A stretch of DNA of 64,000 nt from Gynurincola endophyticus (GCF_003991195.1 NZ_RCWL01000004.1:62001-126000); one strand, 5' to 3'; counted from the first letter of the stretch, positions 5,995 through 34,300 are shown. The notes: generated by a model from the letters alone, not told the origin. Numbers and translations are program-made.

Positions 5995-6044
5995 ATCTGC
6001 TTTTTTATAAACCACTCAATTAGTTTTTAATTTTCAATTAAGAA

Positions 6045-7461: not shown

Positions 7462-10400
7462 TTAAAAGGAAACAGATACACCCATCAGGAAAGTACGCGC
7501 CTGTGGATAAAAACTATAATCATAACCGAGCAACAACGGATTCAATCCAAACAAATTCACTTCCGGATCATAACCGGTATACTTAGTGAATGTCCAAAGG
7601 TTTTGAACAGTGGCATATACCCTCAATCTGTTGAGTTTGGTTTTTTCCAGCAATTTGGCCGGAAGGTTATATCCGAATGTTACGTTCTTTATCCGCAGGA
7701 AACTACCATCTTCCAGATACATGGAAGATGTTAATGGTGCAATGTCAGCCCCCATCCGGGTATGAGTATTGGTTGGATTGCCAGGCGTCCATGCATTTCG
7801 ATAAGTATCTCTGGTAATGTTGGTGGTACCGTTAGGAAATTTATAATCGATATATGCTTCGTTCAATATTTTATTACCGTATGAACCGGTGATAAGAATA
7901 TTTAAGTCAAAGTTTTTATAAGAAAAATCATTACTGAAACCTGCGATAAAATCAGGATGCGGATTTCCTATAATGGTACGGTCATTGGCATTGATCATAC
8001 CATCATTATTCACATCAACGATTTTCTGATCTCCCGGACGGGCGCCCGGTTGTGCTGAGTTCTTTATATCATCACCTTCCTGCCAGATACCTGCATTCTG
8101 ATAACTGTAGAACATGCCGATCGGGTGACCTACTCTTGCCACACTATAACTTCCGAAGTAAAACAAATAACCATTAGTAATAATTTCATTGTTCTCTCCT
8201 AAATCCAATACTTTATTTCTATTAAAACTGATATTGAAGTTGGTCGTCCATCTGAAATTCTTACCCTGTATCGCCTGTGCGTTCACCGCCAGTTCCAAAC
8301 CTTCATTTGAAATAGCTCCTGCATTCGTAATAGCAGAAGTATAACCCGAGCTATAAGGTATTTGTGCATTCAATAACAGATCGGTCGTTTTTTTATAATA
8401 ATAGTCTGCAGTAAATAACACTCTGTTATTGAAAAATCCTGCATCTATCCCTGCATTAAATTGACCAGTACGTTCCCATCTCAGATTTCTGTTAGCAATT
8501 GAAGTGGGTACAATACCAACCTGGCGTTCATCTCCCAGAACAGCATATACACCATTTAGCTTAGCGAGTGAACTGTAAGAGCCGATTTCCTGATTACCGG
8601 TAATACCGTATGATACACGTAATTTCAAATCACTGATTGCAGGAATATTCTGAATAAAGTTTTCTTCGGATAAACGATAAGCTACAGATGCAGAAGGGAA
8701 AAAACCGTATTTGTTGTCAGCTCCAAAGCGTGAAGAGCCATCAACTCTTCCGGTGAAAGTGAATAGATATTTTCGGTCGTACTGATAATTTAAACGAAGG
8801 AAATAAGAATTCAAAGATGCTTTATCACTGGTAGAGGCAGAAGGTTCCTGAATCTGGCCAAGCCCCAGATTGTTAAACTTGAAGTGATCATCAACAAAAC
8901 CTTTAGCAGTAGCAGAAACATTGTTAAAATACGTTTCCTGGAAAGTAATACCGGCTACCACATCTCCCTCATGTAAATCACTTTGCAAAGAATAGGATAA
9001 AGTATTTTCATTCAGCCAGGAAAGATATCTTGAAGTACTGATGCTGGCAGTACCTAAATTATCTACATATCCGTTACCCGGTGTTCCTTTCGGCTGATAA
9101 TACTCATATCTGCCGTAAGAAATATCAGCCCCGGCCATCGTGCGGAATTTCAGGTTTGGAATAATTTCATACTCGCCATACACACTACTGATCGCGTGTG
9201 TTTTTTTGAACTGGTTGGTAACACTTTCAGCTAATGCCACCGGATTACCTTTACTATAAAAAGAAGCTCCGTAGAAAGACGCCAGTTCATTGTTCGTTAA
9301 CCAGTTTCCGTATTTATCTTTAGGAGACGCAATCGGAGATATCGTTAGAGCAGCGGTTAAAGCACCGGGATCATCCTGATCATGAAAAGTTTCAGACAGG
9401 TTGAAGTTAACACCGAACTTTAATTTATCAGTGGCTTTGTTTTCGAGATACAAGCGCAGGTTACCACGCTGCAATCCGGAACCGATTACAACACCTTCCT
9501 GATTGAAATAATTCATTGAAAGGTTGTACTGTGTTTTATCATTACTGTTACTGATACTTAACTGATGATTCGTAATGTTTGCAGGCCTGAAGATTTCTTG
9601 CTGCCAGTCTGTACCCTTACCAAATGCGGCCGGATTATCAAAGATGGGTGTTAATCCGTCAGTAGCTCTTACGTCATTTACGAACTGCGCAAATTCCGTT
9701 GCATCGAGCATGTCAATTTTGCGGGAAGCTGTTTGCTGGCCGGCATAAGAATTTAACTCAGCTCTGAAACGTTTGGCAGCATTCCTTTTAGTGGTGATAA
9801 TAACAACACCATTAGCGCCTCGTGAACCGTATATAGCCGTAGCAGAAGCATCTTTCAGTATATCGATACTTTCGATATCGCCCGGGTTAATAGTACTGAG
9901 ATCACCTACTCCCGGAAACCCATCGATTACATATAAAGGATTACTACCTCCGTTGATAGAGTTAATACCTCTGATACGAACAGCAATGTCACCACCCGGT
10001 TTAGCACCGCTGGCATTAACAATCTGAACACCGGCAGCTCTGCCTTGCAGAAATTGTTCCATCGAGGTAACGGGTGTTTCAGCGATTTGCCGACCGCTTA
10101 CGCTGGAAACAGCACCCGTAAGATCTGTTTTTTTTCTGGTTCCATAACCGATTACCACTACATCTGCCATTTGCTGAATTTCTTCTGACAAGCGAATGAT
10201 CCAGTCTTTTTTATTGTTGATAGAATCAATAAAAACCTGATAGCCTACCATCGATACTTCTATTACTTTATCGGTAGCAGCCTGAATAGTTAAGGTAAAA
10301 TAACCTTTTTCATCTGTGAGAGTAGTTTTTCCGGTTTCTTTAATACGAACCGTAGCACTTTGTAAAGGAAGCTGGGTGGAGGCAGATAAAACCTGCCCTT

Positions 10401-19441: not shown

Positions 19442-20413
19442 ATGATCATAAAAAGTAAAATAAAGGGGCTGGACGAGTGGTTGTTTATTGAAGATATTCC
19501 TGATCAGTATACACCCAACAAATCTGTATCAGAAAAAAAGGTAGTCATTAACCGTAGTCCTGTACGCATGGATAATTTCCAGTTAAGCAGCTCGGGGATA
19601 TTTTTATTGTATTCTGAGATGAAATGCGAAGAGCCGGTTCGAATCAGAACTGAAGTGTTGGGGGAAACCGTTACCAGCCATTTTATATTTTACAAACAAC
19701 CATCATTTAAGAAACTTACTATTTCAGGCAGAAGCCGCCATAACATCCGATACATTCCGAATACGGTTCAGGAGTATGAGATGAAAGACGGCATAGAATA
19801 CAGTTATTTCCTGATGGTACTTTCGAAGGATTATTATTTTCACCTGATCAACCGGCACTCTTCTCTGCATGAAGATTTTGTGCAGGAAATTGAAAAGGGA
19901 AAACATGTCAGTATTGCCCCCAATGATATGCCGGTAACACCGGAAATGAGCCGTGTGATCAGTGAATTACAGGAAGGACAAAAATCAGGAGAAATACGTC
20001 GGTTACATACCGAAGCAAAAGTAATGGAGTTACTGATTTATCAATTGGAACAGTTAAAATCTTCAGAAGAAGAGCTTTCCATCAAAGCATTACGCGCAGA
20101 TGATATTGAAAAACTGGAATTAGTAAGAAGTATTCTGGAACAAAACTTTATTGACCCGCCTTCGCAAAAGGAACTCTCTGTAAAAGCAGGATTAAACGAA
20201 TCTAAATTGCGACGTTCGTTTAAAGAGTATTTCGGAACAACCATTCACGACTATACAGTTCGCATAAAAATGGAATACGCACGAAAGTTATTATTAGAAG
20301 AGCGTAAAACTATTTTTGAGGTTTCAGAACTGACAGGCTTTAATCATCAGAATAATTTCAGTAGTGCTTTTAAAAAATACTTCGGTATTTCACCGAGTGA
20401 TATAAGATATTAG
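19442..20413 (+). CDS. AraC-family transcriptional regulator (PchR-like)
   Basis: A 323-residue regulator. The C-terminal third (about 215-323) carries two helix-turn-helix motifs of the AraC family: SQKELSVKAGLNESKLRRSFKEYFG and TIFEVSELTGFNHQNNFSSAFKKYFGISPSDIRY. The N-terminal two thirds form a ligand-sensing domain without strong similarity I can name. AraC proteins of this build (PchR-like) often control iron and siderophore/heme uptake genes in Bacteroidota. This one is convergent with the heme transport genes, a long inverted repeat separating their stops. It is also divergent from the CE1 esterase, so its target could be either. Confidence 0.85.
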   Translation: MIIKSKIKGLDEWLFIEDIPDQYTPNKSVSEKKVVINRSPVRMDNFQLSSSGIFLLYSEMKCEEPVRIRTEVLGETVTSHFIFYKQPSFKKLTISGRSRHNIRYIPNTVQEYEMKDGIEYSYFLMVLSKDYYFHLINRHSSLHEDFVQEIEKGKHVSIAPNDMPVTPEMSRVISELQEGQKSGEIRRLHTEAKVMELLIYQLEQLKSSEEELSIKALRADDIEKLELVRSILEQNFIDPPSQKELSVKAGLNESKLRRSFKEYFGTTIHDYTVRIKMEYARKLLLEERKTIFEVSELTGFNHQNNFSSAFKKYFGISPSDIRY

Positions 20414-20504
20414 TTAATTGAAAATGGAAAGCTGAAAATTGAAAACGTTGCCAGGCTGTATTGTTCAAAACACTTTCAATTTTCCATTTTCAACTTTCAA
20501 TTAA
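20414..20504. repeat. Long imperfect inverted repeat between convergent genes
   Basis: Arms 20414-20444 and 20474-20504 are reverse complements at 26 of 31 positions, both built of TTGAAAA/TTGAAAG-like units. The left arm begins directly after the regulator stop. The right arm overlaps the last codons of the fusion gene ending at 20490. It probably acts as a two-way terminator, and resembles TTGAAAATTGAAAA-type intergenic repeats seen in Bacteroidota. Confidence 0.75.
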
Positions 20505-22340
20505 GTGCATTCTTTCTAATGTATTCTTCCACTCTTCCACATGCTCTTTTCCTACTTCATGTTTACCGGTTACCTGCAACATGAGTTCTCCGTCGTGGTC
20601 ATATAATTCAAGCAGATGCATAGGCCCGGTTATAGTTGGTTGAATAATATGCCAGACGCTTCCGATGGCATCTTCCTGAACAAACAACTTACATTTTGCA
20701 TCGGCCACCTGATAACAGCTGCCTGTATCAATTAAATTCTTAATCACTCCTACCTGTGTATGTATACAACTTCTGTTGCCGGCTTGTAACTTCACCGGTA
20801 TTTCGTTATTCATACAATGCGTCATCACTTTTTTAAAATTGTAAAGGCTCATTTTTGCCGCACAATTATCTGGTGCCAGCCGTATTGCCTGACTACGTCT
20901 GATTCCGAATTTCCGGAGAATGACAGATAGTTCATCTGCATTTTTCATAGCATGCCATGAATCACAAAACAATTGCTGATTAACAGATTCATCAGGTATT
21001 TCTTTGTATGACTGAACCTTACTTTTATGTATATCAAATGGCTCTTGTCTGGGTGAGCGAAATTGTCTGACAATAGCATCATAAACGTCAATATCACTTT
21101 CATCAGTTAAAGTAGCTTTATACAACAGCTCTCCTTCTGCATTAAAAAACTGTAAGCTCTTTTCGTTATTATAAATATCATTATAAGCAAAAACAGTTTG
21201 CCATAACTGATGCGATACATTCAGATCAATATCTTCATCATCAAATTTTACAATTTGTTCATTGCTGGAATAATTCTGATAAATGCCGGTTCGTTCCACC
21301 ATCACATGTTCGCTGTAGGTTTGGGTGGTTACTGACTTCAGGGCGGGTAAATTTCTTAATAAAGCCGGTATATCTGCTTCCAGTAAAACGGCATTGCCGT
21401 TTAACTCAAGCATTACTGTTGAGGCTTCAGAAATATTCAATTGACGGGCAATGTCACGTATTGTATAATGAGGATACATTTCTCTAAGAGAGATATATCT
21501 ATCTTTTAATGATTGTTGTTTTGATTCTTCCGGCAACCAGGAGTTGAAGTTTTCGGCCTGTAACCTGATTTCCTTTACTAGTACAAAAGGTTTCAAAGTA
21601 CGCGGATTGATCATGACTTCTGTTTCAATAGAAAAAACGGAATAGATATCCAAAGGAGTTAATACTTCCGAAGGGGTACCATCTTTCCATCTTCTACCAT
21701 TTTTCATCATCAATATTCTATCGGCATATTGTGCGGCAAGGTTAATTTCATGTAATACTGCCAAAACCATATATCCTTTTTTGGCTAATGCCCTGGCAAT
21801 AGCCATCGTTTGTTGCTGATACAACATATCAAGGCCGGTAACAGGTTCGTCTAAAATAATCAATCCTCTTTTTCTATCCCACAATTGCGCCAGTACGCGG
21901 GCCAGTTGAACCCGTTGTTGTTCGCCTCCGGAAAGAGTTAGAAAAGATCTTTCTGCCAGGTGTTCAATACCACAAACCTTCATGGTTTCCAGTACAATAT
22001 CATGATCAGCATTTGTAGGGTTATTACGATGATAAGGATATCGCCCCATCATAATAATTTCCTGACAAAGGAATGGCATATTGACTACATTGTGCTGACT
22101 TAAAGTTGCCTTTAAAGAAGCCAGTTCAACTGAATTATAATCCTGTAACTTTTTTCCGTATAAACTAACAGATCCGCTATCAGGTTTTTGTTCACCGGTA
22201 ATCATGCGCAGCAATGTAGACTTGCCGGCACCATTCGCTCCAAGAAGCGCTAATACTTCACCAGGACGAACCGAAAACGTAATATCTTTCAGAATCGTTC
22301 TTTTCTTAACTGCATATGTAACCGAATCAACCTTCAACAT
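20490..22340 (-). CDS. hmuV-hmuS: Fusion of heme ABC transporter ATPase (HmuV) and HmuS/ChuS-like heme protein
   Basis: A single 616-residue frame. Residues 1-265 are a heme-type ABC ATPase: Walker A GANGAGKST (34-42), signature LSGGEQQRVQLARVL (136-150), Walker B LIILDEP (160-166), H-loop His197. Residues 270-616 match a whole HemS/ChuS/HmuS protein with both of its repeats. The first covers about 280-430 (IRDIARQLNISEAS, LLRNLPALKSVTTQ). The second covers about 455-616 (GNRSCIHTQVGVI, FVQEDAIGSVWHIIQP, LLELYDHDGELM). HmuS-type proteins bind heme and pass it on or degrade it in the cytoplasm, so the fusion ties import energy to heme handling. By alignment from memory, the ChuS axial ligand His193 is replaced by Asp469, and the His73 position by Val348. 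It starts 11 bp after hmuU. Confidence 0.9.
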   Translation of the reverse strand: MLKVDSVTYAVKKRTILKDITFSVRPGEVLALLGANGAGKSTLLRMITGEQKPDSGSVSLYGKKLQDYNSVELASLKATLSQHNVVNMPFLCQEIIMMGRYPYHRNNPTNADHDIVLETMKVCGIEHLAERSFLTLSGGEQQRVQLARVLAQLWDRKRGLIILDEPVTGLDMLYQQQTMAIARALAKKGYMVLAVLHEINLAAQYADRILMMKNGRRWKDGTPSEVLTPLDIYSVFSIETEVMINPRTLKPFVLVKEIRLQAENFNSWLPEESKQQSLKDRYISLREMYPHYTIRDIARQLNISEASTVMLELNGNAVLLEADIPALLRNLPALKSVTTQTYSEHVMVERTGIYQNYSSNEQIVKFDDEDIDLNVSHQLWQTVFAYNDIYNNEKSLQFFNAEGELLYKATLTDESDIDVYDAIVRQFRSPRQEPFDIHKSKVQSYKEIPDESVNQQLFCDSWHAMKNADELSVILRKFGIRRSQAIRLAPDNCAAKMSLYNFKKVMTHCMNNEIPVKLQAGNRSCIHTQVGVIKNLIDTGSCYQVADAKCKLFVQEDAIGSVWHIIQPTITGPMHLLELYDHDGELMLQVTGKHEVGKEHVEEWKNTLERMHLIES

Positions 22341-22351
22341 ACGTATTCTGT

Positions 22352-23389
22352 TTATTGATGTAGTTTCTTTTTGTCTTTAATAAGGATATAGATAAATACA
22401 GGTGTTCCCAGCAGTGCCGTAATAACTCCGATCGGCAATTCAATCGGCGGTACCAGAATACGGCTTAGCATATCTGCTACAGTAAGTACAAGAGCACCCA
22501 TAATAGCTGAGGCAGGTAAAACATATCGGTTATCAACACCTCCTATTAATCGTATAAGATGTGGCACCAGCAATCCTACAAAACCGATAATACCGGAAAC
22601 AGAAACGGCGGCTCCTACTGCCAACGTTGCCAGCAACACTACTCTTCTTTTAATTACCGATGGCCTCATTCCCAGTTGTTCTGCCTGTGATTCACCTAAT
22701 ACGAAAGCATTTAGCATTTTACCCTGAAATGGTAAAATGAAAACAGGAATCAATATAAACGGTGCTACTACCAGTAAAGTTTCCTGTGTGGCGCCCGCAA
22801 GGCTGCCTAACATCCAGAAGGTAATGTTTCGCAATTGCTGGTCATCGGCCATAAAAGAAATCAAACCGGTTAAGGCGCCGGCTAGTGCATTAATGGCAAT
22901 ACCTGCGAGTAACATGGTGGCAATATTAGGTTTACCATTTGTTTTTGAAATATTGTACACCAGAATAGAAGCAACAGCAGCTCCTATAAATGCACTTACA
23001 GGAAGCAGGTAATAGCCGACCATCAGACTCATACCGGCGAACAGGGTCGTTTCAAGCATTATTACAAGTGCACTCATTAACGAAGCTCCGGCAGATATAC
23101 CAATCAATCCGGATTCAGCAAGCGGATTTCTAAAAACCCCCTGAATGGCAGCACCTGAAATGCCCAGCGCTGCACCTACCAGTATTCCCATCAATACACG
23201 TGGAATACGCACAATTGACAGCACTCCCTTGTACTGGTCATCCAGCTGATCGCTATGATAAATGCCCAGTATATCCAGTACTGACCAGATTACCTGCTTA
23301 ATAGGAATATCCATAGCTCCTACCGACATCGAAACAATCACTGAGATAATAAGTGCGGCTGTCAGTGATATGTAAATAACTTTTTTCAT
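22352..23389 (-). CDS. hmuU: Heme ABC transporter permease HmuU (FecCD family)
   Basis: A 345-residue FecCD/BtuC-type permease with about ten hydrophobic helices. Family sequence includes RIPRVLMGILVGAALGISGAAIQGVFRNPLAESGLIGISAGASL near residue 60. Also present are FWMLGSLAGATQE mid-protein and VSGIIGFVGLLVPHLIRLIGG near 265, the region that docks the ATPase. It forms the inner-membrane channel for heme delivered by HmuT, encoded 70 bp upstream, and pairs with the ATPase part of the fusion protein downstream. Normal length. Confidence 0.94.
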   Translation of the reverse strand: MKKVIYISLTAALIISVIVSMSVGAMDIPIKQVIWSVLDILGIYHSDQLDDQYKGVLSIVRIPRVLMGILVGAALGISGAAIQGVFRNPLAESGLIGISAGASLMSALVIMLETTLFAGMSLMVGYYLLPVSAFIGAAVASILVYNISKTNGKPNIATMLLAGIAINALAGALTGLISFMADDQQLRNITFWMLGSLAGATQETLLVVAPFILIPVFILPFQGKMLNAFVLGESQAEQLGMRPSVIKRRVVLLATLAVGAAVSVSGIIGFVGLLVPHLIRLIGGVDNRYVLPASAIMGALVLTVADMLSRILVPPIELPIGVITALLGTPVFIYILIKDKKKLHQ

Positions 23390-24658: not shown

Positions 24659-25357
24659 ATGATCAACTTTTTAACCCGATGGGGCATTGTTGCCGTACTG
24701 TTTTTAACCGTTTCCTGTACGAAAGAATCTGCTCCGGCAGACAATGACCAAAAAAGCACCTGGGTATACGATTTAGCTGGCGACACCGGTGCCGCAATGG
24801 GTGATAATTCCGAAGGAAAAGAAAAACGGGGCTTCTATACCTTTCTGTTCAGATTCAGGGATCAGCGTCAGATATGGCTGCGTACTGCTGCAGACTCTGC
24901 TCAATGGCTTCCTACGGCAGATTGGGATCTGGCCTTTACCGGTCCGTACAATAGTGAAATTTTTGCCAATGATGCATCAAAGGAATATAATCCTGCCAAA
25001 GAATATGATGGAGTGGGTACGGCAAAAGTAGTGATGCTGGATAAAGCATATCACCTGGTAACGGAAGCACCTGACGATGCTGTTTTTGAAACTTCAGAAG
25101 TCAACAAAATCGGATGGGCGGGTTCTACAACATCTGCCGGCTGGTTTTTCTATAGCCTGAGTTCTCACATTATGCAGCCGATTAAGAGCAGAACATACGT
25201 CATCAAATTAAATAGTGGCAAATTCGCCAAGCTTGAATTGTTAAATGCATATCAGGGTAATCCTCCTGTAGTAACCGATTTAAACTGGCCTGCGCCCTAT
25301 TTTACTTTCAGGTATTATGTTCAGGAAGATGGGAGTAGAAACCTGAATACAAATTAA
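24659..25357 (+). CDS. hmuY: HmuY-family heme-binding lipoprotein
   Basis: A 232-residue lipoprotein, lipobox LTVSC (about Cys20). The all-beta body matches the HmuY family: WLPTADWDLAFTGPYNSEIFAN, then TYVIKLNSGKFAKLELLNAYQ, then VTDLNWPAPYFTFRYYVQEDGS. In Porphyromonas gingivalis HmuY takes heme from host proteins and gives it to the receptor HmuR. Heme ligands vary between homologues (His or Met); SSHIMQP around residue 170 offers both. First gene of the plus-strand heme lipoprotein operon. It is more like classical HmuY than the two longer paralogues downstream. Confidence 0.9.
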   Translation: MINFLTRWGIVAVLFLTVSCTKESAPADNDQKSTWVYDLAGDTGAAMGDNSEGKEKRGFYTFLFRFRDQRQIWLRTAADSAQWLPTADWDLAFTGPYNSEIFANDASKEYNPAKEYDGVGTAKVVMLDKAYHLVTEAPDDAVFETSEVNKIGWAGSTTSAGWFFYSLSSHIMQPIKSRTYVIKLNSGKFAKLELLNAYQGNPPVVTDLNWPAPYFTFRYYVQEDGSRNLNTN

Positions 25358-25451
25358 GCGAACTATCACAAAATATAAAGAGCACCATACAATCGTATTA
25401 TACACTTACTCAGTTGCTTTAATTTAATTCACACACACTAATAAAAGAAAA

Positions 25452-26210
25452 ATGGAAAGGAGAACTCTATGGCTTTTAATGCTGACTGTTCTGTTGGCAT
25501 TTACTGCCTGTTCAAAAGATGATGATAACGAACCTGATCCGGAACCGGAACCAACGGCGGATTTTTATTACAAATTACATCGTGTTGAGAATTTTGCTGT
25601 AGAAAATGATGACAGTAATCCAACGCAGGCAAAACCGGCAGTAGCTTTCAGTCTGTACAACAAACAAGAAGTACCTACCAGCTACCTGAAAACTAACAGA
25701 TGGGATATTTCATTCAGTAACCTCTATAATAGTTTCTTAGGTGGAAACAACGGTGCGGATCTCAACAATGCCGGTTACGGCGGTGCCTCCAGAGGAGGAA
25801 TATTAATACTTGAAAAACACTTTGATGAAGTAACCGAAGTACCTGCTAACGCCGTGTTCAGAACTGCCAGTGGTATTATTGGTACAGACGATTCAGGTGC
25901 GTTTGGAGAAGGTATCGGCTGGTACCTGTATGATTTCGGCGGTAACATTGTAGGAGATGGTACAATACAAAAGCAACACATTGCCTATGCACTCAGCGAA
26001 GGAGTTACCACCAACGATCAACTTACTGTAAAACCACGTACAATCATTGTTAAAACAGCAAAAAACGATTATGCTAAGATCAAAATGATCAGTTGTTACA
26101 AAAACCTGTTTACACCGGAGGAGTGGTACAAAGACGCTCCAAAAATGTTCTTCACATTTGAATACGTAGTAATTCCGGGAGGAGAAACAAAATTTGAAAT
26201 AAAACCCTAA
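25452..26210 (+). CDS. HmuY-family lipoprotein, long form (cassette 1)
   Basis: A 252-residue lipoprotein, lipobox AFTAC (about Cys20), with an acidic linker of D/E/P residues. The body shares the HmuY pattern: YLKTNRWDISFSNLYNSFLGGNNG, GWYLYDFGG, and PRTIIVKTAKNDYAKIKMISCYK. It is clearly paralogous to the protein at 29044, with common YYKLHR, SRWD/NRWD, KQHIAYAL and KIKMISCYK stretches, and more distantly to the hmuY at 24659. A surface heme-binding role is likely; the exact ligands are not visible by eye. It lies 94 bp after hmuY and 11 bp before the first DUF5018-like gene. Confidence 0.85.
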   Translation: MERRTLWLLMLTVLLAFTACSKDDDNEPDPEPEPTADFYYKLHRVENFAVENDDSNPTQAKPAVAFSLYNKQEVPTSYLKTNRWDISFSNLYNSFLGGNNGADLNNAGYGGASRGGILILEKHFDEVTEVPANAVFRTASGIIGTDDSGAFGEGIGWYLYDFGGNIVGDGTIQKQHIAYALSEGVTTNDQLTVKPRTIIVKTAKNDYAKIKMISCYKNLFTPEEWYKDAPKMFFTFEYVVIPGGETKFEIKP

Positions 26211-26221
26211 ATAACCCAGAC

Positions 26222-27187
26222 ATGAATTCTTTAAAGAATATTTTTTTAATCCTGCTCTCAGTTGTATTTTTTGGTACTGCCTGTACAAAAACAGAAGATT
26301 TACCCCCTTTAAGTCAGAGCCAGTTATTAAGTTTTAAAGTTGCTACACTTGATGGTGAGCTGGTAGCTGCAGTTGATCAGACAGATAAAACAATCACCAT
26401 ATATGTTCCTTTCTATTATGAATTTGATGTAATTGACCCGATTATTACAGTTTCAGCGGGTGCCCGATTAAAAGAAGAAGTACTTCCGGTAAGTGTGCTG
26501 GCAGATGATGTTCAATACACTGTGATCGGATCAGACAATAGCGAAACCGTTTATGCCCTTACAGTTAAGTTACTTCAGCTCACTCCTCTCACCATGAGAG
26601 AATTATCATCCGAAACCAACACTGCCACTATGGTTATCGGAGCTTATAACGTAAAAGTATACGGAAGCTTTAATACTACTGACGCCAGCAAAATCACCAT
26701 TTTTGTAGTAGATGAAGAAGGAAATGAATATCCTACCAATGCCAATACCGGGTTCGGCCCTGCAAGTGTTGCTGTAACACAAAATGGCAATGGACTGAAA
26801 GAATATTCATTCGGTAATATACAAATACCTCAAACGCTTACACCGGGATTATATTATATAAGAGGAAAAGTATTAGGACAGGTAGGCACTACAAAGTATC
26901 CGGTGAGAATGGTATGGGGATTACCGGTATTTGTTTACGCTACTATTGATGTTAAAGCCACCGAAACGTTTAAACTGGAAACCGCAAGTGCTGCACTGAA
27001 TGACGTCAGAAGAGTTTACTTCATTGTAAACGGTGTAGAAAAAGATCTTGAAATTGTTAGTCAGACCTATAGAGATGTAACAGTTCGCGTACCGTCAGAT
27101 ATGCCTCCGGGATCTTATAATCCAAAAGTAGTTTGTGGAACTGTTGGAACGGCCTCTCCTTTCTGGAACATTACCATCAGCGAATAA
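26222..27187 (+). CDS. DUF5018-like/IPT lipoprotein A (cassette 1)
   Basis: A 321-residue lipoprotein, lipobox FGTAC (about Cys21). The N-terminal domain (about 35-125) shows the DUF5018-like pattern: LLSFKVATLDGELVAAVDQTDKTITIYVPF, IDPIITVSAGARL, YTVIGSDNSETVYALTV. The remainder is beta-rich with IPT/TIG-like segments (KVYGSFNTTDASKITIFVVDEEGNEYP). It is paralogous to the protein at 29849. Next to HmuY-type genes it is probably a surface-exposed accessory that binds heme or a heme protein, but no such role has been shown to my knowledge. It is 28 bp before lipoprotein B. Confidence 0.8.
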   Translation: MNSLKNIFLILLSVVFFGTACTKTEDLPPLSQSQLLSFKVATLDGELVAAVDQTDKTITIYVPFYYEFDVIDPIITVSAGARLKEEVLPVSVLADDVQYTVIGSDNSETVYALTVKLLQLTPLTMRELSSETNTATMVIGAYNVKVYGSFNTTDASKITIFVVDEEGNEYPTNANTGFGPASVAVTQNGNGLKEYSFGNIQIPQTLTPGLYYIRGKVLGQVGTTKYPVRMVWGLPVFVYATIDVKATETFKLETASAALNDVRRVYFIVNGVEKDLEIVSQTYRDVTVRVPSDMPPGSYNPKVVCGTVGTASPFWNITISE

Positions 27188-27215
27188 CCCCTGTCAAAAC
27201 CTTTAAAAATTAAAC

Positions 27216-28181
27216 ATGTACTTAATTAATAAACTTACTCATAAAACAATTCTTTCATCAATAGGAACCATTGTTCTTTTATCAGCTGTATTGTTCTCGT
27301 GCAAAAAAGAAGATGCTAAAATTCCCTATACTGAAGTTGTAAATTTCACTGTTGATGTTGAAGGCGAAGCTGTAAAAGCGGCTGTTGATAATGACAAAAT
27401 CATTTTATACTGGCCGTTAGAAAAGGATATTCCTGAAACAATCAGCCCGGTGATCAATGTATCAAAAAATGCTACTATCAGTCCGGCTTCAGGAGCTACA
27501 ATTTCTACCACTGAAACAGTAGTTTACACTGTTACGTCAGAAACTGGTGCTGTACGTAAGTACACATTATACATTCCGAATAACAAAGTAAAACCTTACA
27601 TAAAATCATGGGATGGACTGACTCTCTACAATGGAAAAGCATTTATAGTGGAAGGCAATCAGATTAATATACGCGGAGATTATTTCAGTACAAAAGAAAA
27701 CGGATCTCGTGTATTCATTACCAATGAAAACAATCAGGAAGTAGAAGCTGAAATAGTGGCTAAAACCGGATTAGTATTTGGTTTCAGACCAAAAGAAATA
27801 GGAACATATAAAAAGTTCAGATTCGAATCAGCAGGATACACTTTTACTTTTGATACTGTATTTCATTACGTAAGCGATCCATTCTCACGTATATCCTACC
27901 CTACTGAAAATATAACAGTAAAACAGGGAGAAGATTTTGTATTAACAGGAAAAAACCTTGACAAAATCAGCAGTGTAGTTCTAACAAAATTAAGTGGTGG
28001 TGATCAATATGAACTGGTGATCAAGAATGCTACTTCAGCAACGATTACACTGACAACTCCCGCAACAATACCAACCGGAGAATATAATTATTTACTTTAT
28101 AAGCAAAATGCAGGAGAGTATCACGACATTATAAATGGCCAGCTTGCTTTATGGGAAACTGCAATAATAGTAACCAATTAA
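27216..28181 (+). CDS. DUF5018-like/IPT lipoprotein B (cassette 1)
   Basis: A 321-residue lipoprotein, lipobox VLFSC (about Cys29). A DUF5018-like N-domain (EVVNFTVDVEGEAVKAAVDNDKIILYWPL, DIPETISPVINVSKNATISPASG, YTVTSETGAVRKYTLY) is followed by two IPT/TIG-like beta-sandwiches (about 140-320, with FVLTGKNLDKISSVVLTKL). Paralogous to 30808 (shared YWP, DIPETI, PASG, KKY/RKY). Lipoprotein A is only distantly related, through the DUF5018-like domain. It closes the lipoprotein part of cassette 1. A hairpin separates it from the heme oxygenase gene. Function inferred only from location. Confidence 0.8.
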   Translation: MYLINKLTHKTILSSIGTIVLLSAVLFSCKKEDAKIPYTEVVNFTVDVEGEAVKAAVDNDKIILYWPLEKDIPETISPVINVSKNATISPASGATISTTETVVYTVTSETGAVRKYTLYIPNNKVKPYIKSWDGLTLYNGKAFIVEGNQINIRGDYFSTKENGSRVFITNENNQEVEAEIVAKTGLVFGFRPKEIGTYKKFRFESAGYTFTFDTVFHYVSDPFSRISYPTENITVKQGEDFVLTGKNLDKISSVVLTKLSGGDQYELVIKNATSATITLTTPATIPTGEYNYLLYKQNAGEYHDIINGQLALWETAIIVTN

Positions 28182-28191
28182 TACTTACATC

Positions 28192-28219
28192 AATGAGCTA
28201 TTGTTGTCAATAGCTCATT
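28192..28219 (+). terminator. 12-bp perfect hairpin between lipoprotein B and heme oxygenase
   Basis: AATGAGCTATTG (28192-28203) pairs with CAATAGCTCATT (28208-28219) across a 4-base loop. No T-run follows, so it may be a partial terminator or an mRNA-stabilising element that lowers or separates heme oxygenase expression. Confidence 0.6.
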
Positions 28220-28246
28220 CTTACAATCATACAAAAATACACGACT

Positions 28247-28813
28247 ATGTTAAGTAACAGCATCAAAGAAGCTACCAAAAGTGCCCATCAGCAATTAGAA
28301 GTAGTGGTAGTAAAAAAGTTAAAAGCTATCAGAAGTCATGCAGATTATGCAGATTTATTAAAACACTTTTATTCATATTTCAGTACGGTAGAAAAAACTA
28401 TCGCTCCATACATTACGACTGAAGTGTTACCTGATTACAGTCAGAGACGTACTTCTATTTACCTGAAACAGGATATCGAAGCGTTAGGGTTTTCAACACA
28501 AGAACTACCTGCTGCACAAGCTCCTGAAATCAATAGTACTATTGAAGCATTAGGTGCTTTATATGTAATGGAAGGTAGTATAATGGGTGGTAAAATCATC
28601 GTTCAGATGTTAGAAAAAGGTGGTATTACCAATGGAGTTTCGTTTTTTTCAGGATACGGAGAAAATACCGGCAGAATGTGGGGTGCATTTACAGAAGTAA
28701 TGAATCACCATGCACCTACCGAAGCTGATGAGCAAAAAGCGATTCATGCCGCCAATGAAACTTTCAGCAGATTCGGCGATGTTTTTACTTCTTCACTGGT
28801 AGCAAACTCATAG
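28247..28813 (+). CDS. Bacterial heme oxygenase
   Basis: A 188-residue cytosolic protein of the heme oxygenase family, which opens heme to biliverdin, iron and CO. The proximal heme ligand is expected at His14 in KSAHQQLE. The distal helix is visible as ALGALYVMEGSIMGGKII (about 100-117), with the flexible glycines GSIMGG. Length suits bacterial HemO/BphO-type enzymes. No signal peptide. It sits between the two lipoprotein cassettes on the same strand, so imported heme can be used as an iron source. A nested hairpin with a T-run follows its stop. Confidence 0.9.
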   Translation: MLSNSIKEATKSAHQQLEVVVVKKLKAIRSHADYADLLKHFYSYFSTVEKTIAPYITTEVLPDYSQRRTSIYLKQDIEALGFSTQELPAAQAPEINSTIEALGALYVMEGSIMGGKIIVQMLEKGGITNGVSFFSGYGENTGRMWGAFTEVMNHHAPTEADEQKAIHAANETFSRFGDVFTSSLVANS

Positions 28814-28825
28814 TACTATATTTTC

Positions 28826-28906
28826 ATTGACGGCAGGCAATTATCTGAGATCCGTTTTTTACGAAACACTACTTTCTTAGATAAAAAATATCTGCCGTCA
28901 ATTTTT
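28826..28906 (+). terminator. Nested hairpin terminator after heme oxygenase
   Basis: Outer stem ATTGACGGCAG (28826-28836) with CTGCCGTCAAT (28892-28902). Inside, TTATCTGAGA pairs with TCTTAGATAA with one mismatch. Five T follow the stem. It ends the first lipoprotein/heme oxygenase unit. Confidence 0.7.
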
Positions 28907-28958
28907 CAAACTGTTTAGCATACAAAATTTACCGAAAAGCATACAAATGAAATCCAAA

Positions 28959-28995
28959 TTCGTAAATGAAAAACATTGATTGTACATCAATTTTG
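28959..28995 (+). promoter_or_regulatory. Candidate promoter/operator of cassette 2
   Basis: TTCGTAAATG (28959-28968), palindrome ATTGAT-TGTAC-ATCAAT (28975-28991) and CAATTTTG (28988-28995, one mismatch to the -7 consensus) lie 50-85 bp before the ATG at 29044. The TTCGTAAATG box and its spacing to the -7-like element match the hmuY promoter at 24593. Confidence 0.45.
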
Positions 28996-29043
28996 CATTT
29001 TAGAATGATTGTATAGCAAAATTATTAAACCCTGTAATTCAAA

Positions 29044-29826
29044 ATGTATCAGAAAAGGAATTTTGTAGAAAAAGTAAAATTAGCAGCAGCACTAGTACTG
29101 TCTTTATCACTCGTGCTGGTATCCTGCTCAAAAGATAAAGAAATTATTGAAGACGAAGAGCCTCCGGTAGGCACAGAACATTACTATAAACTGCACCGGA
29201 TTAATAACCTGCCTACCGGATCAGAAGAATCGTCTGTTTCGCTAGACAATCGCCCTCCTATTTATTTAAATTTTGCTACCGGCACACTGGTAGATGCCAG
29301 ATACGCTAAAACAAGCAGATGGGATATGGCATTAGGAGGAATGTTTAATTGTTATTTCTCAGGAAATAATGGTACTAATGGTACTAACTTAGGATTTATG
29401 GGGCCCGGTGTTGGAGGAATTTATATTGTTGATAAACCTTTTGACGAGGTTATTGAAATTCCGAGCGACAATCTGTTTCAAACCGCTGCTGATGTTTACG
29501 GATCAGATGCAGCGGGCAATTTCGGCGATCGTATTGGTTGGTTTTTGTATGACTTCGATGGCGTTATTGTCAGCGATGGAAGACCGGAGAAACAACACGT
29601 CGCTTATGCTTTAGCCGAACCATTAACACTTACTAACGGAAAAGTCTTATCACCCAGAACAGTAATTGTTCGTACTGCAAAAGGTGATTATGTAAAAATA
29701 AAAATGATCAGTTGTTATAAAGATATCTATACACAAGCTGACTGGTACATTAATTCACCATTCATCTATTTCACCTTTGAATATGTGGTGGTACCAAAAG
29801 GAAGCAACAGATTTGAAATCAAATAA
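29044..29826 (+). CDS. HmuY-family lipoprotein, long form (cassette 2)
   Basis: A 260-residue lipoprotein, lipobox VLVSC (about Cys28). Body colinear with the protein at 25452: YYKLHRINNLP, KTSRWDMALGGMFNCYFSGNNG, GWFLYDFDG, KQHVAYALAE, PRTVIVRTAKGDYVKIKMISCYK. It is a HmuY-type beta protein expected to bind heme at the surface. Its own promoter-like region shares a sequence box with the hmuY promoter. It is 22 bp before the next lipoprotein gene. The second copy may have a different heme source or affinity; that is inference. Confidence 0.85.
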   Translation: MYQKRNFVEKVKLAAALVLSLSLVLVSCSKDKEIIEDEEPPVGTEHYYKLHRINNLPTGSEESSVSLDNRPPIYLNFATGTLVDARYAKTSRWDMALGGMFNCYFSGNNGTNGTNLGFMGPGVGGIYIVDKPFDEVIEIPSDNLFQTAADVYGSDAAGNFGDRIGWFLYDFDGVIVSDGRPEKQHVAYALAEPLTLTNGKVLSPRTVIVRTAKGDYVKIKMISCYKDIYTQADWYINSPFIYFTFEYVVVPKGSNRFEIK

Positions 29827-29848
29827 TAACTTTTCAAAAGAAACTATC

Positions 29849-30799
29849 ATGAAATATTCTTTCAAAAGAGTATATCTTTTAACTGCTTTATTCGGAGTTT
29901 GCACCATCATTTTCAGTGCCTGCACCAAAACAGAGAAATTACCAGACGAACCTAAGAACAAAATCACTGCTTACAAAATAGAAACAGCAGAAGGTATTTT
30001 ATTCGGCGCCATCGATAATATCAATAATACCATTAAAGTATATATACCGTATTATTTCGACTTTGCTATCATCGACCCTATCATTGAATTGAGTGAAGGG
30101 GCTAAGCTTAAAAACGAAGCAGAGCCAATTGAAATCGATGCACAGGATTATATTTATACAGTAGTAGGTGCTGACAATACTACCCGTGATTATAAACTTA
30201 TTATTGACATTCAGATTTCAAGACCACTTTGGGTAGAACGTATGGGAACAAGAAGTTATCTCGGAAACGGGTTTTCTGTATATGGTAATTTCAATACAAA
30301 AGATGCAACCGAACCGAAGTTGTTCATTGTAGATGAAGAAAATAATGAATATCCTTTAATCATTGCTGAAGGACACAACGTTTCAATTGTTCCGAGTGGA
30401 AATAATACTTACGGAATCACCGGTTATTTTTCACCTCAAAATTTGAGTCTGGAAAAACTTTATAAAGTAAGAGCAAAATTCCGTGGAATGACAGCAGATG
30501 GTGAGCAATGGTTTGAATTCACTCAATTTCAACCTCAATTCCACAATCTGACACCTTATGTTGAAGTAAAACGTGGTGATACGGTAACTCGTTATGCTTC
30601 TGCATCTACATTAGTAAAGCCAACCAGAATGTTTACCTATATTGATGGAGTAGAAACAGAAATGGAAATCATTTCATGGGACTTTGAAAAAATGACTTTT
30701 GTTGTTCCTGAAAACATGACTTATGGAATTACCTATGACACACGCGTATCATTCCAGAACTTCATGGACGCTCAAATTATCTTTAACGTTATTGAATAA
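29849..30799 (+). CDS. DUF5018-like/IPT lipoprotein A' (cassette 2)
   Basis: A 316-residue lipoprotein starting at 29849 (MKYSFKRVYLL). An open frame reaches back to 29777, but that would overlap the previous gene and bury the signal peptide. Lipobox FSAC near residue 24. The N-domain is like that of protein A: IETAEGILFGAIDNINNTIKVYIPYYFDFAIIDPIIELSEGAKL, then YTVVGADNTTRDYKLII. The C-terminal part has beta-sandwich segments (VYGNFNTKDATEPKLFIVDEENNEYP) colinear with A. Paralogue of 26222; 8 bp before B'. Role inferred from the heme context. Confidence 0.8.
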   Translation: MKYSFKRVYLLTALFGVCTIIFSACTKTEKLPDEPKNKITAYKIETAEGILFGAIDNINNTIKVYIPYYFDFAIIDPIIELSEGAKLKNEAEPIEIDAQDYIYTVVGADNTTRDYKLIIDIQISRPLWVERMGTRSYLGNGFSVYGNFNTKDATEPKLFIVDEENNEYPLIIAEGHNVSIVPSGNNTYGITGYFSPQNLSLEKLYKVRAKFRGMTADGEQWFEFTQFQPQFHNLTPYVEVKRGDTVTRYASASTLVKPTRMFTYIDGVETEMEIISWDFEKMTFVVPENMTYGITYDTRVSFQNFMDAQIIFNVIE

Positions 30800-30807
30800 A
30801 TTTTCTC

Positions 30808-31755
30808 ATGAAAGATCAAATTTCTAAAAATATACTACTGTTAATAATTTTTGCAGCGTCTTGTTTTACTGCCTGTAAAAAGGAAACAGAAAAATACGAC
30901 AATACAGAAATAATTCTATTTGAATATACGGATACGAATGGAGAAACCTTGCAGGCACCTGTATATGGTGACACCATTTACGTTTATTGGCCTCCGATGC
31001 AGGATATACCGGAAACAATTACACCGGCAATTACCTTACATCAGTCTGCAAATATTTTTCCGGCCAGTGGCCATACATTAAACCTTACCGATAACAACGG
31101 TTATACAATTACTGCAGAAAACGGTTCTGTAAAAAAATATAATGTTAAACTGATTATTAATCAACCTTATCCTTTTATCAGTCAGCTACAAAACATTAAT
31201 ACTGCAAATGGTAACAGGTTTTGGGTGAATAATAAAAACCTCACGTTCGCAGGAGATAATTTCCTTTTTGATGGTATGGAAACAAAAGTCTGGGCAAAAG
31301 ACGAAAGTGGTGTAAAAACTCCGGTAACAATTGTTTCTAATACAGGTGCGCGACTGATTGTTTCAGCCCCTCCAAAAGGCAAATACAAGCTCATCATCGA
31401 ACTAGGTATCCGTGAGGTAGAATATTTTTACGATGTAGAAGTGATTGAACCATTTGCAACACCGGCCTTTAATTTCACTACCGGCGGTTCAGTAAAAAGA
31501 GGTGAAACAATTACCCTTTCAGGAACACTACTCAACAAGATGACAAAAGTTACATTAGGTGATTATTTTGGAGTAAACATTCCATTAACGATCGTTACAG
31601 CAACTGAATCATCCATTATGTTACAAGTTCCGTCAGATGCAGCTACCGGATCCTGGAATCTCTTAAAGTTTGAATATTCCGGCGATCAGTATTACAACGC
31701 AGGGGCTTTATCAAGTTATTTATCAGGAGCACGTGTTATCAGTATTACACAATAA
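30808..31755 (+). CDS. DUF5018-like/IPT lipoprotein B' (cassette 2)
   Basis: A 315-residue lipoprotein, lipobox FTAC (about Cys22). A DUF5018-like N-domain (ILFEYTDTNGETLQAPVYGDTIYVYWPP, DIPETITPAITLHQSANIFPASG, YTITAENGSVKKYNVKL) precedes IPT/TIG-like sandwiches (ETITLSGTLLNKMTKVTLG near 235). Paralogue of B at 27216, with the same domain order and identical DIPETI and PASG motifs. It precedes the TonB receptor gene by 163 bp, with a hairpin and T-run in between. Probable surface accessory of heme capture; not proven. Confidence 0.8.
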   Translation: MKDQISKNILLLIIFAASCFTACKKETEKYDNTEIILFEYTDTNGETLQAPVYGDTIYVYWPPMQDIPETITPAITLHQSANIFPASGHTLNLTDNNGYTITAENGSVKKYNVKLIINQPYPFISQLQNINTANGNRFWVNNKNLTFAGDNFLFDGMETKVWAKDESGVKTPVTIVSNTGARLIVSAPPKGKYKLIIELGIREVEYFYDVEVIEPFATPAFNFTTGGSVKRGETITLSGTLLNKMTKVTLGDYFGVNIPLTIVTATESSIMLQVPSDAATGSWNLLKFEYSGDQYYNAGALSSYLSGARVISITQ

Positions 31756-31866: not shown

Positions 31867-31906
31867 AACACATAGTTGAAATTCAGCTATGTGTTCTGTT
31901 GTTTTT
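31867..31906 (+). terminator. Terminator-like hairpin just before the heme receptor start
   Basis: AACACATAG (31867-31875) pairs with CTATGTGTT (31887-31895) over an 11-base loop, followed by CTGTTG and five T (31902-31906). The receptor ATG is at 31919. It may end the lipoprotein operon or act as an attenuator controlling how much receptor is made. Confidence 0.6.
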
Positions 31907-31918
31907 AAAGCATATTGT

Positions 31919-34300
31919 ATGTATCATCTGTCAAAAATATTTTTCACATTCATCTTCTTGCTTTTAAGCCATGTTCTCACGGCCCAGAAAGTTAATATCA
32001 GTGGCGCCGTGACGGACACTTCAGGCCGGCCTTTAGCAGGAATCACCATCCGGCTTGAACCTGACAGACATCTTACCCAGACAGATGAGAAAGGACAGTT
32101 TATTATCAAAAATATTTATCCGGGTAATTATACCCTCATAGCCACTAGTGTTGGTTTTTTAGAACTCAATCAAACAATAACAGTTGAAAGCAATAACAAA
32201 AACTTTGTTGCTATTCGCCTGGAGGAAGGCATTAATGAATTAGATGCAGTAACTGTTCATACGATATCTAAAACCAGTAGTCCTGATAACCTGATCAATA
32301 TTCAACGAGGTGCCATGCCGGTGACAGTCATCAGCAGGGAAACGATTGAGAAAATGGGCAGCAGAAGACTAGATGAAATACTAAAAGAACAAACCGGAAT
32401 TGCAGTGGTGAATGATATCAGTGGCGGGGCAAGAGCAACGGGTATTCAAATGCAGGGATTCAGTTCTGAATACATCATGATATTAATTGACGGGCAACCG
32501 ATGGTAGGGAGAAACTCAGGAAGTTTTGATTTATCCCGGATCAGCGTTACCAATATAGAACGGATAGAAATCGTGAAAGGTGCGTCCTCATGTTTATTCG
32601 GCAGTGAAGCATTAGGGGGAGCGATCAACATCGTGACGCGACACGGAGCTATACAGCCCCAGGCACTGGCCAATATTCAATATGGCAGTTTAAATATATC
32701 AGATGCAACACTTGAAGGAGAAACGCCCTTTCATCATAACAGAGGAACCGTAAATTTATCTGCCAATTATTATCATAGTGACGGATATAATACTGATCCA
32801 AACTATATTGCCCGAGGCACTACTGCTCCACCCTACGACGATTACAGTGTTCAGGGAAGAGCCAGGTATCAGCTTTCATCTAAAGGCATCATCGGCATGA
32901 GCGGAAGGTATGCTTTACGAAAATCATATATGGAAAAGAGGTTTGAATCTCAGAATGGTAATGTACACACCACCGGTGACAGGCAGGATATCGCAGATAT
33001 TAATCTTTCAATGTACTATAATCATGATTTTACCAATGGTTTAAAAAGTATGAGCCGCGTTTATGTGACCAGTTATTTATCTGATATGAGTGTAATGTGG
33101 CAGCAACAAAACAATGATATCAGTAGTGAAAAATTCAGGCAGACTCTTTATCGCTTTGAACAGCAGTTTGCATATGCATACAATAGTCGTTTGAAATTTA
33201 CCGGAGGTTTAGGTGCAGGGCTTGAAACGATGAATACCAATGCATATACTGAGGCAGGAAACATGGCTACTTACTTTTCATACCTTCAGCTGGATTGGTT
33301 ACCCTTTGCCAATACAGAAATTATGGGTGGTATCAGGTATGATGGTCATAATAATTACGGTGGAAAATTAAATCCAAGTATAGGGCTACAACAAAAGCTT
33401 AATTCAATAGTATCATTCAGGGTATCTGCAGGAACAGGATTTAAAGCACCTGATTTCAAGAATCGTTTTCAGGTATTTGTGAATCCTACCAGTAATTATA
33501 TGGTAATTGGTACGGAAGTATTGGCATCAACCTTAGCGCAATTACAAAATGCCGGAGAAATCAGCGAGATCCGTCAGTATCTTTTTAAGCAGATAGCCGG
33601 CAATCTTCAACCGGAAAGATCGGTTTCATTAAATACAGGTTTTATCATAAAACCAGCCAAAAATTTAAAGTTTGAAGTGGGTGGCTTTTACCACCGTCTT
33701 ACCAATCAGATATATAGTGTACAGGTAGCCACCGGCACTGGTAACCGTTTAATATTTTCTTATCAGAATCTTCCAAAATCGTATAATACCGGTTTTGAGG
33801 GATCATTTTCATGGGCTCCGATAAGCAATCTTGAAATCAGCGGAGGATATCAGTTTCTGATATCAAAAGACAGGAGTGTGAAGGATAGTATTCTTGCCGG
33901 AAATTTTCCCTGGAATAAGGTGAGAAACAACAATACCGGAGAAACATTTACGGCCCGGCCTTCCGACTATTGGGGAATAGAAAACAGATCACGGCATATG
34001 GCTAATCTACGGATCATGTACAGTATACCTTCAGCCGGCATCAATATCAGTTTCCGCACCAATTACAGAGGAAAATATGCATTTGGAGATGCGAATAACA
34101 ATAATTTCATTGACAAGTATGATCACTTTGTGAATGGTTATCTGCTTTTAAATGCATCTATTGAAAAAAAATTATTGCAAGACCGGCTAAGCATCCGGCT
34201 TACAGCTGATAATATCAATGATTACACAGATCGATTGATTCCCGGACAGCCCGGCAGGATTATTTTATTTGGAGCAAGTTATCGATTTCAAAAGTATTAA
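31919..34300 (+). CDS. HmuR-like TonB-dependent heme receptor
   Basis: A 793-residue outer-membrane receptor from the ATG at 31919 (MYHLSKIFF); an upstream in-frame ATG at 31889 lies inside the hairpin and is unlikely. Signal peptide to about TAQKV, regulatory-like domain (about 22-105), plug (about 125-250) with LDEILKEQTGIAVV, MILIDGQPMVGR and IEIVKGASSCLFGSEALGGAINIVT, then a BtuB/FhuA-type barrel. GFKAPDFKNRF near 505 and NLQPERS are typical of heme/vitamin B12-type receptors. With HmuY-like lipoproteins upstream it is the likely heme gate, comparable to HmuR. A 42-bp palindromic terminator follows directly. Confidence 0.92.
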   Translation: MYHLSKIFFTFIFLLLSHVLTAQKVNISGAVTDTSGRPLAGITIRLEPDRHLTQTDEKGQFIIKNIYPGNYTLIATSVGFLELNQTITVESNNKNFVAIRLEEGINELDAVTVHTISKTSSPDNLINIQRGAMPVTVISRETIEKMGSRRLDEILKEQTGIAVVNDISGGARATGIQMQGFSSEYIMILIDGQPMVGRNSGSFDLSRISVTNIERIEIVKGASSCLFGSEALGGAINIVTRHGAIQPQALANIQYGSLNISDATLEGETPFHHNRGTVNLSANYYHSDGYNTDPNYIARGTTAPPYDDYSVQGRARYQLSSKGIIGMSGRYALRKSYMEKRFESQNGNVHTTGDRQDIADINLSMYYNHDFTNGLKSMSRVYVTSYLSDMSVMWQQQNNDISSEKFRQTLYRFEQQFAYAYNSRLKFTGGLGAGLETMNTNAYTEAGNMATYFSYLQLDWLPFANTEIMGGIRYDGHNNYGGKLNPSIGLQQKLNSIVSFRVSAGTGFKAPDFKNRFQVFVNPTSNYMVIGTEVLASTLAQLQNAGEISEIRQYLFKQIAGNLQPERSVSLNTGFIIKPAKNLKFEVGGFYHRLTNQIYSVQVATGTGNRLIFSYQNLPKSYNTGFEGSFSWAPISNLEISGGYQFLISKDRSVKDSILAGNFPWNKVRNNNTGETFTARPSDYWGIENRSRHMANLRIMYSIPSAGINISFRTNYRGKYAFGDANNNNFIDKYDHFVNGYLLLNASIEKKLLQDRLSIRLTADNINDYTDRLIPGQPGRIILFGASYRFQKY

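What the first reader, a model, noticed from the sequence alone, without database searches (positions are those of the whole stretch)
24659..31755. Duplicated three-lipoprotein heme cassette around a heme oxygenase
HmuY-like (25452), A (26222), B (27216) and again HmuY-like (29044), A' (29849), B' (30808) have the same order, the same lengths to within about 10 residues, and clearly matching motifs pair by pair. A heme oxygenase separates them. A cassette of a HmuY protein with two DUF5018/IPT-type lipoproteins, kept twice, suggests a surface complex in which all three parts are needed. Classical hmu loci have one HmuY and no such partners.
Basis: partly seen in the sequence, partly recalled or inferred. 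Interest (0 to 1): 0.7.

Follow-up and report, generated by a model that had tools for sequence, protein, structure and literature searches.

The report
Repeated surface cassette for heme capture
This bacterium carries, twice side by side and once elsewhere, a three-gene cassette of cell-surface proteins that travels as a unit with a heme-import receptor in many related bacteria; two of the three proteins are built like the sugar-grabbing proteins of gut bacteria, suggesting that this design has been reused to gather heme iron.

Summary
HmuY-like (Y), A and B occur twice in the same order, with pairwise identities of 44%, about 31-34% and about 31%. A third complete Y-A-B cassette lies on another contig of the same genome, away from any receptor. 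The gene at 24659 is a second kind of HmuY-like protein (D). The two window cassettes are not recent tandem copies: Y1, A1 and B1 each group with standalone Sphingobacterium cassettes, not with Y2, A2 and B2.

Of 80 Y loci found elsewhere in Bacteroidota, 74 hold both A and B. In 296 same-family genomes the strong A and strong Y hits fall in the same 13 genomes; 20/20 A genes have B downstream and 18/20 have Y upstream. All 13 genomes carry D and a close relative of the window's TonB receptor. Y models as a HmuY fold with one invariant His. A and B belong, by sequence and fold, with surface glycan-binding proteins (SGBPs) of utilisomes.

Most likely this is an accessory heme-capture module, organised like an SGBP-equipped utilisome, for one D-TonB-receptor core. 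That the three proteins touch each other or bind heme is not shown. Classical hmuYRSTUV loci lack A and B. I found no description of the trio.

The parts
19442..20413 (+). AraC-family regulator linked to the locus
   Evidence: Close homologues lie beside the equivalent locus in G263 (L161, 500 bits); weaker ones beside others
20490..22340 (-). Heme ABC ATPase (HmuV-like) fused to ChuX/HemS heme-handling domains
   Evidence: Pfam HemS, ChuX_HutX, ABC_tran; NF010068 heme ABC ATPase above cut-off
22352..23389 (-). Heme ABC permease (HmuU-like)
   Evidence: Sequence, position, and a homologue beside the same locus in L161
23460..24326 (-). Periplasmic heme-binding protein (HmuT-like)
   Evidence: Sequence, position, and a homologue beside the same locus in L161
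24659..25357 (+). D: second type of HmuY-like surface lipoprotein, partner of the TonB receptor
   Evidence: HmuY Pfam 21.7 bits; D/Y hhalign 100% and a His invariant in 80/80 D; one strong copy in every Y-A-B genome
25452..26210 (+). Y1: HmuY-family lipoprotein of cassette 1
   Evidence: AF2 pLDDT 92; Z 15.1 to HmuY 3h8t; His176 invariant in 46 Y
26222..27187 (+). A1: SGBP-like lipoprotein of cassette 1
   Evidence: AF2 pLDDT 92.8; N-terminal domain Z 10.8 to levan SGBP 8aa2_G; A profile to 8aa2_T E 1.2e-5
27216..28181 (+). B1: SGBP-like lipoprotein of cassette 1, homologous to A
   Evidence: B profile to 3hbz E 3e-8; A/B hhalign 100%
28247..28813 (+). Heme oxygenase
   Evidence: PF01126 54 bits, E 2e-14
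29044..29826 (+). Y2: HmuY-family lipoprotein of cassette 2
   Evidence: PF14064 above cut-off; 44% to Y1
29849..30799 (+). A2: SGBP-like lipoprotein of cassette 2
   Evidence: 31% to A1, E 1e-50
30808..31755 (+). B2: SGBP-like lipoprotein of cassette 2
   Evidence: 31% to B1, E 5e-41; TIG domain
31889..34300 (+). TonB-dependent receptor with N-terminal extension, presumed heme receptor
   Evidence: Plug, barrel and CarbopepD_reg_2; only one of this subfamily in the genome; 42-71% identical receptor in the 12 other Y-A-B genomes

Best explanation
Y-A-B is a surface capture module of a TonB-dependent heme import system. Inferred mechanism: D and Y (both HmuY-type) bind heme and hand it to the receptor at 31889. 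A and B are SGBP-like lipoproteins whose lipidated N-terminal Ig-like domain sits on or near the receptor rim; their outer TIG/Ig domains reach out to hold heme-bearing proteins or to position Y, as SGBPs do for glycans in the levan utilisome. Many relatives add a surface S41 peptidase, which could cut heme-bearing proteins. Heme then passes through HmuT and HmuU/HmuV, and heme oxygenase opens the ring to free iron. Shown here: gene order, homology, conservation and co-occurrence of the trio, HmuY and SGBP folds, association with one receptor/D subfamily and with heme genes. Inferred: surface display, heme binding, contacts with the receptor, transport.
For: Trio conserved: 74/80 Y loci hold A and B, median Y-A gap 21 bp, in Sphingobacteriaceae, Flavobacteriaceae and Chitinophagaceae. 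In the same family, strong A and strong Y hits fall in the same 13 of 296 genomes; 20/20 A have B downstream and 18/20 have Y upstream. All 13 have D at E 4e-86 or better and a 42-100% identical receptor. Cassettes keep together when detached from the receptor: own C32, G016, L047, L048, L113. Y, A and B trees agree for copies 1 and C32. Y is HmuY-fold (Z 15.1) with an invariant His176. A matches levan SGBP by sequence (E 1.2e-5) and by fold (Z 10.8); that SGBP domain docks on the SusC lip (PMC7618045). Heme context: HmuT/U/V, HemS/ChuX, heme oxygenase; heme oxygenase within 10 kb in 46/80 loci. Lipoprotein signals are followed by K/D/E-rich residues in Y, A, B and D, consistent with surface export.
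Against: No physical contact, heme binding or expression was tested. Five loci carry receptor-D-Y-heme oxygenase without A/B nearby, so import can probably run without them. Two A-B pairs lack a neighbouring Y. The receptor falls below the NCBIfam hemin cut-off and scores slightly better to the B12 model, so its substrate rests on context. SGBP N-terminal domains are widespread in glycan loci, so the likeness tells architecture, not ligand.
Confidence: 0.62

Rival explanations
1. A and B are capture proteins for a particular heme-bearing protein, and the several Y-A-B cassettes in one genome are alternative heads for different heme sources that feed one shared D-receptor core.
For: Own genome: three Y, three A, three B but one strong D and one receptor of this subfamily. 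G317 has three Y and three A-B pairs, and G278 two of each, with one strong D and one such receptor each. Copies are very divergent (A 31%, B 31%), as expected if they bind different things. Cassettes occur detached from receptors.
Against: Divergence may only be age. No binding data. Most of the other genomes hold one cassette.
Confidence: 0.35
2. The locus imports something other than heme, for example another tetrapyrrole or a metal chelate, and the HmuY-type proteins bind that.
For: Receptor scores best to the TonB B12 model (121 bits, well below its cut-off).
Against: Heme oxygenase, HemS/ChuX fusion, heme ABC ATPase above its curated cut-off and HmuT/U sit in or beside the locus; heme oxygenase recurs in 46/80 loci.
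Confidence: 0.1
3. A and B are ordinary glycan-binding SGBPs that share an operon with heme genes, for example to hold cells to glycosylated hosts or polymers, without taking part in heme transfer.
For: Sequence and fold likeness to SGBPs.
Against: Near-perfect linkage to Y even when detached from receptor and other heme genes; no SusD or glycoside hydrolase in the window locus or the L161 locus.
Confidence: 0.2
4. The two window cassettes are a recent neutral tandem duplication.
For: Same order and lengths, adjacent.
Against: Only 31-44% identity; copy 1 is nearer to Sphingobacterium cassettes than to copy 2; no other locus of 80 has two A or two B.
Confidence: 0.03

Closest known systems
hmuYRSTUV heme operon (Porphyromonas, Bacteroides)
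   Same: HmuY-fold surface lipoprotein with a TonB-dependent heme receptor and downstream heme handling (PMC12583661; fold Z 15.1)
   Different: One HmuY and no A/B; HmuS de-chelatase, where this locus has heme oxygenase and a HemS/ChuX domain; here two or three HmuY-type proteins (D, Y, and X in relatives)
hfpR-DoxX-hfpY operon of Flavobacterium psychrophilum
   Same: HmuY-family heme-binding lipoprotein co-transcribed with its TonB receptor in a non-Bacteroides member (PMC9331221)
   Different: No D, A, B or heme oxygenase reported in the operon; a DoxX gene lies between
Levan/dextran utilisomes (SusCD + SGBP + GH)
   Same: Lipidated SGBP with N-terminal Ig-like domain; A profile finds this SGBP as best match in the PDB by sequence, N-terminal domain Z 10.8; multi-lipoprotein layout around one receptor (PMC7618045)
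   Different: HmuY-type proteins where SusD would be; heme genes in place of glycan enzymes; receptor is not a SusC model match
BtuB-BtuG and XusA-XusB lipoprotein-receptor complexes
   Same: TonB receptors that work with dedicated surface lipoproteins for non-glycan cofactors or iron (PMC10404256, PMC13142918)
   Different: XusB is a DUF4374 protein, not HmuY/SGBP; no three-lipoprotein cassette of this kind seen in what I read

Membership tests
HmuY family (PF14064) | HmuY fold | tested here: met
   AF2 of Y1 vs 3h8t Z 15.1, rmsd 3.0 over 155 residues; Y profile to BfrB E 1.1e-9
HmuY family (PF14064) | Pfam gathering score | tested here: inconclusive
   Y2 29.0 above 27; Y1 25.2 and D 21.7 just below
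HmuY family (PF14064) | Heme ligation by a pair of residues (His/His or Met/Met) | not testable with these tools
   One invariant His in Y (46/46) and in D (80/80); not placed on the heme site of 3h8t
Classical hmu operon | hmuY-hmuR-hmuS-hmuT-hmuU-hmuV gene set | tested here: not met
   No HmuS/CobN gene among the window frames read, 14000-42000; A, B, D and heme oxygenase are extra
SGBP (surface glycan-binding proteins) | Lipoprotein with N-terminal SGBP Ig-like domain followed by further beta domains | tested here: met
SGBP (surface glycan-binding proteins) | SusC/SusD pair and glycan enzymes in the same locus | tested here: not met
   No SusD-like gene or glycoside hydrolase in the Y-A-B loci read in full
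SGBP (surface glycan-binding proteins) | Binds a glycan | not testable with these tools
   No assay
Heme oxygenase (PF01126) | Family profile | tested here: met
   54 bits vs cut-off 23
TonB-dependent heme receptor (TIGR01785) | Curated score 316.85 | tested here: not met
   89.8 bits; general plug and barrel models are met

The most novel reading that the evidence does not exclude
A modular heme utilisome: one TonB receptor with a fixed HmuY-type partner (D) serves several interchangeable Y-A-B heads that spread as units. SGBP-type lipoproteins from glycan uptake were recruited to catch different heme-bearing proteins, in many relatives with a surface S41 protease.
Probability: 0.3. Interest if true: 0.75.

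Novelty: new variant of a known kind. Interest (0 to 1): 0.62.

Why it matters
Heme uptake in Bacteroidota is described around HmuY plus a receptor. Here a widespread locus of Bacteroidota such as Pedobacter, Mucilaginibacter, Sphingobacterium and Flavobacterium adds two glycan-type SGBP lipoproteins, conserved as a trio, and up to three HmuY-type proteins. If it works as inferred, the utilisome layout is a general outer-membrane design reused for a cofactor, and the partners to test are now named and ready for pull-down, cryo-EM and knockouts in harmless species such as Pedobacter or Flavobacterium johnsoniae.

Tried and rejected
Recent tandem duplication: rejected by trees and low identity. 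HfpY operon of F. psychrophilum as the same system: that operon is HfpR-DoxX-HfpY without A/B (PMC9331221). A promoter match for the Bacteroidota motif TTTG-N17-23-TANNTTTG: 1 match in the window, 4.3 expected by chance, none near the locus. Y1 against the PDB by single-sequence search gave nothing; the profile and the fold did. Phylum-wide search with A gave few strong hits because the draw is thin (10 of 395), so it was used only to show that A is uncommon. Literature: no paper found in the held open-licence library linking HmuY with SGBP/TIG partners; subscription papers are not covered, so absence is weak evidence.

Full report
What is there. The window holds, on the + strand, D (24659), Y1 (25452), A1 (26222), B1 (27216), heme oxygenase (28247), Y2 (29044), A2 (29849), B2 (30808) and a TonB-dependent receptor (31889), with gaps of 8 to 230 bases. 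On the - strand, facing away, lie HmuT- and HmuU-like genes and an ABC ATPase fused to ChuX/HemS domains, and beyond them an AraC-family regulator. Y1/Y2 are 44% identical, A1/A2 31% with E 1e-50, B1/B2 31% with E 5e-41.

D is a second class of HmuY-like protein (hhalign D to Y 100%). A and B are homologous to each other. The same genome has a third Y-A-B cassette on contig C32 (L006: Y 8474-9262, A up to 8487, a small HmuY-like X, B 5633-6634, then an S41 peptidase lipoprotein, all on the - strand) with no receptor or heme oxygenase in the 16.6 kb read. A classical-looking HmuY locus with receptor, HmuT/U/V and HemS lies on contig C23 and has no A or B.

Conservation. A scan of 84,980 species genomes with the Y alignment gave 80 loci from Sphingobacterium, Pedobacter, Mucilaginibacter, Olivibacter, Flavobacterium, Paenimyroides, Niastella, Chitinophaga and others. 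Annotated with local profiles, 74 of 80 hold A and 74 hold B; D is in 74, a receptor in 78 (68 of the 74 trio loci have a close homologue above 250 bits), heme oxygenase in 46, S41 in 27. The common order is receptor-D-Y-A-X-B-(S41)-(heme oxygenase). X, the gene between A and B in 54 of 74 loci, is a third HmuY-superfamily protein (hhalign 97-98% to Y and D). Six loci lack A/B: five with receptor, D, Y and heme oxygenase and one cut off by the contig end. The scan kept only the best 80 of 130 relatives, so it leans to close Y.

An A-first test guards against that bias. In 296 same-family genomes the 20 strong A hits lie in 13 genomes; all 20 have B downstream within about 1.1 kb and 18 have Y directly upstream. 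The strong Y hits fall in the same 13 genomes, from six genera, and B in these plus one more. By my own arithmetic a chance match of the two genus sets would be about 1 in 10^9 if genera were independent. The two A-B pairs without a neighbouring Y are in G278 and G317, which also hold a Y without A/B elsewhere. All 13 have a strong D (E 4e-86 or better) and a receptor 42-100% identical to the window's; of the 16 other genomes searched, nearly all have only distant D-like proteins and receptors of 31-40% identity, G260 (with B but no A or Y hit) being the exception for the receptor. The search scores only some first-look candidates, so single absences are not certain.

Copy number. The own genome has three cassettes but one strong D and one receptor of this subfamily; G317 has three Y and three A-B pairs and G278 two of each, each with one strong D and one receptor of this subfamily. 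No locus of the 80 has two A or two B, so the tandem pair is special to this window. The nearest arrangement, G263 (receptor 71% identical), reads D-Y-X-A-B-S41-heme oxygenase-receptor with HmuT/U/V and the AraC gene beside it. The window looks like that locus with X and S41 missing and a second cassette between heme oxygenase and receptor.

History. Maximum-likelihood trees of Y, A and B over 36 rows agree: copy 1 joins L047/L048 (standalone Sphingobacterium cassettes) at 98-100% in all three, and the C32 copy joins the Olivibacter/Mucilaginibacter/Pararcticibacter group in all three. Copy 2 is long-branched and weakly placed. The cassette is inherited as a block and the two window copies are old or separately gained.

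Structure. AlphaFold2 with session alignments gave confident models of A1 (pLDDT 92.8) and Y1 (92.0). Y1 matches HmuY 3h8t (Z 15.1), BfrB 8b6a (15.0) and other HmuY-type proteins, with unrelated chains at 2.3 or below. His176 is invariant in 46 Y and one His in 80 D; I could not place them against the heme ligands of 3h8t. A1 has three beta domains; the first (residues 31-118) matches the levan SGBP 8aa2_G (Z 10.8, 23% identity), 3hbz and other Bacteroides SGBP-type proteins, and the later two match IPT/TIG tandems. Sequence agrees: the A profile's best match in all PDB sequences is the levan SGBP (E 1.2e-5); the B profile's is 3hbz (E 3e-8), with PbSGBP-B weakly below. In the levan utilisome this lipidated N-terminal domain sits on the lip of SusC and the outer domain grapples substrate (PMC7618045).

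Mechanism, with what is inferred. Lipoprotein boxes followed by K/D/E residues suggest surface lipoproteins. HmuY-type D, Y (and X elsewhere) bind heme; A and B, placed like SGBPs, hold the heme source or steer Y over the receptor; S41 peptidases in relatives may break hemoproteins, as gingipains do for P. gingivalis HmuY (PMC3040768, by its title and abstract). Heme then passes the receptor, HmuT and the ABC transporter, and heme oxygenase releases iron. Only the gene-level and fold-level steps are shown.

Novelty. HmuY with one receptor is well known, and so are SGBPs. Their standing combination as a Y-A-B block serving a D-receptor core was not found in the open papers searched. I rate it a new variant of a known kind.

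Noticed in passing
window 20490-22340 (-): ABC ATPase, ChuX/HutX and HemS domains in one 616-aa protein; in 51 related loci with a match only 4 look fused, the rest hold the ATPase or HemS part alone.
   Followed up: partly
L006 6726-7300 (-) and genes between A and B in 54 of 74 loci: X, a small lipoprotein without Pfam match, is a remote HmuY-superfamily member (hhalign 97-98%), so many loci encode three kinds of HmuY-type protein.
   Followed up: partly
L006 4174-5709 (-); L042 11194-12696; L161 7241-8746 (-): A PDZ-S41 peptidase lipoprotein lies in 27 of 80 loci, usually just after B; it is absent beside the window cassettes.
   Followed up: partly
L157 5440-12770 (-): An A-B pair sits behind a different TonB receptor, a 507-aa lipoprotein without Pfam match and a DUF6607 protein, with no HmuY nearby.
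   Followed up: partly
L163 7339-8544; L158 5302-6543 (-): D-like proteins of about 400 aa, nearly twice the usual length, sit in loci with a TonB receptor.
   Followed up: no
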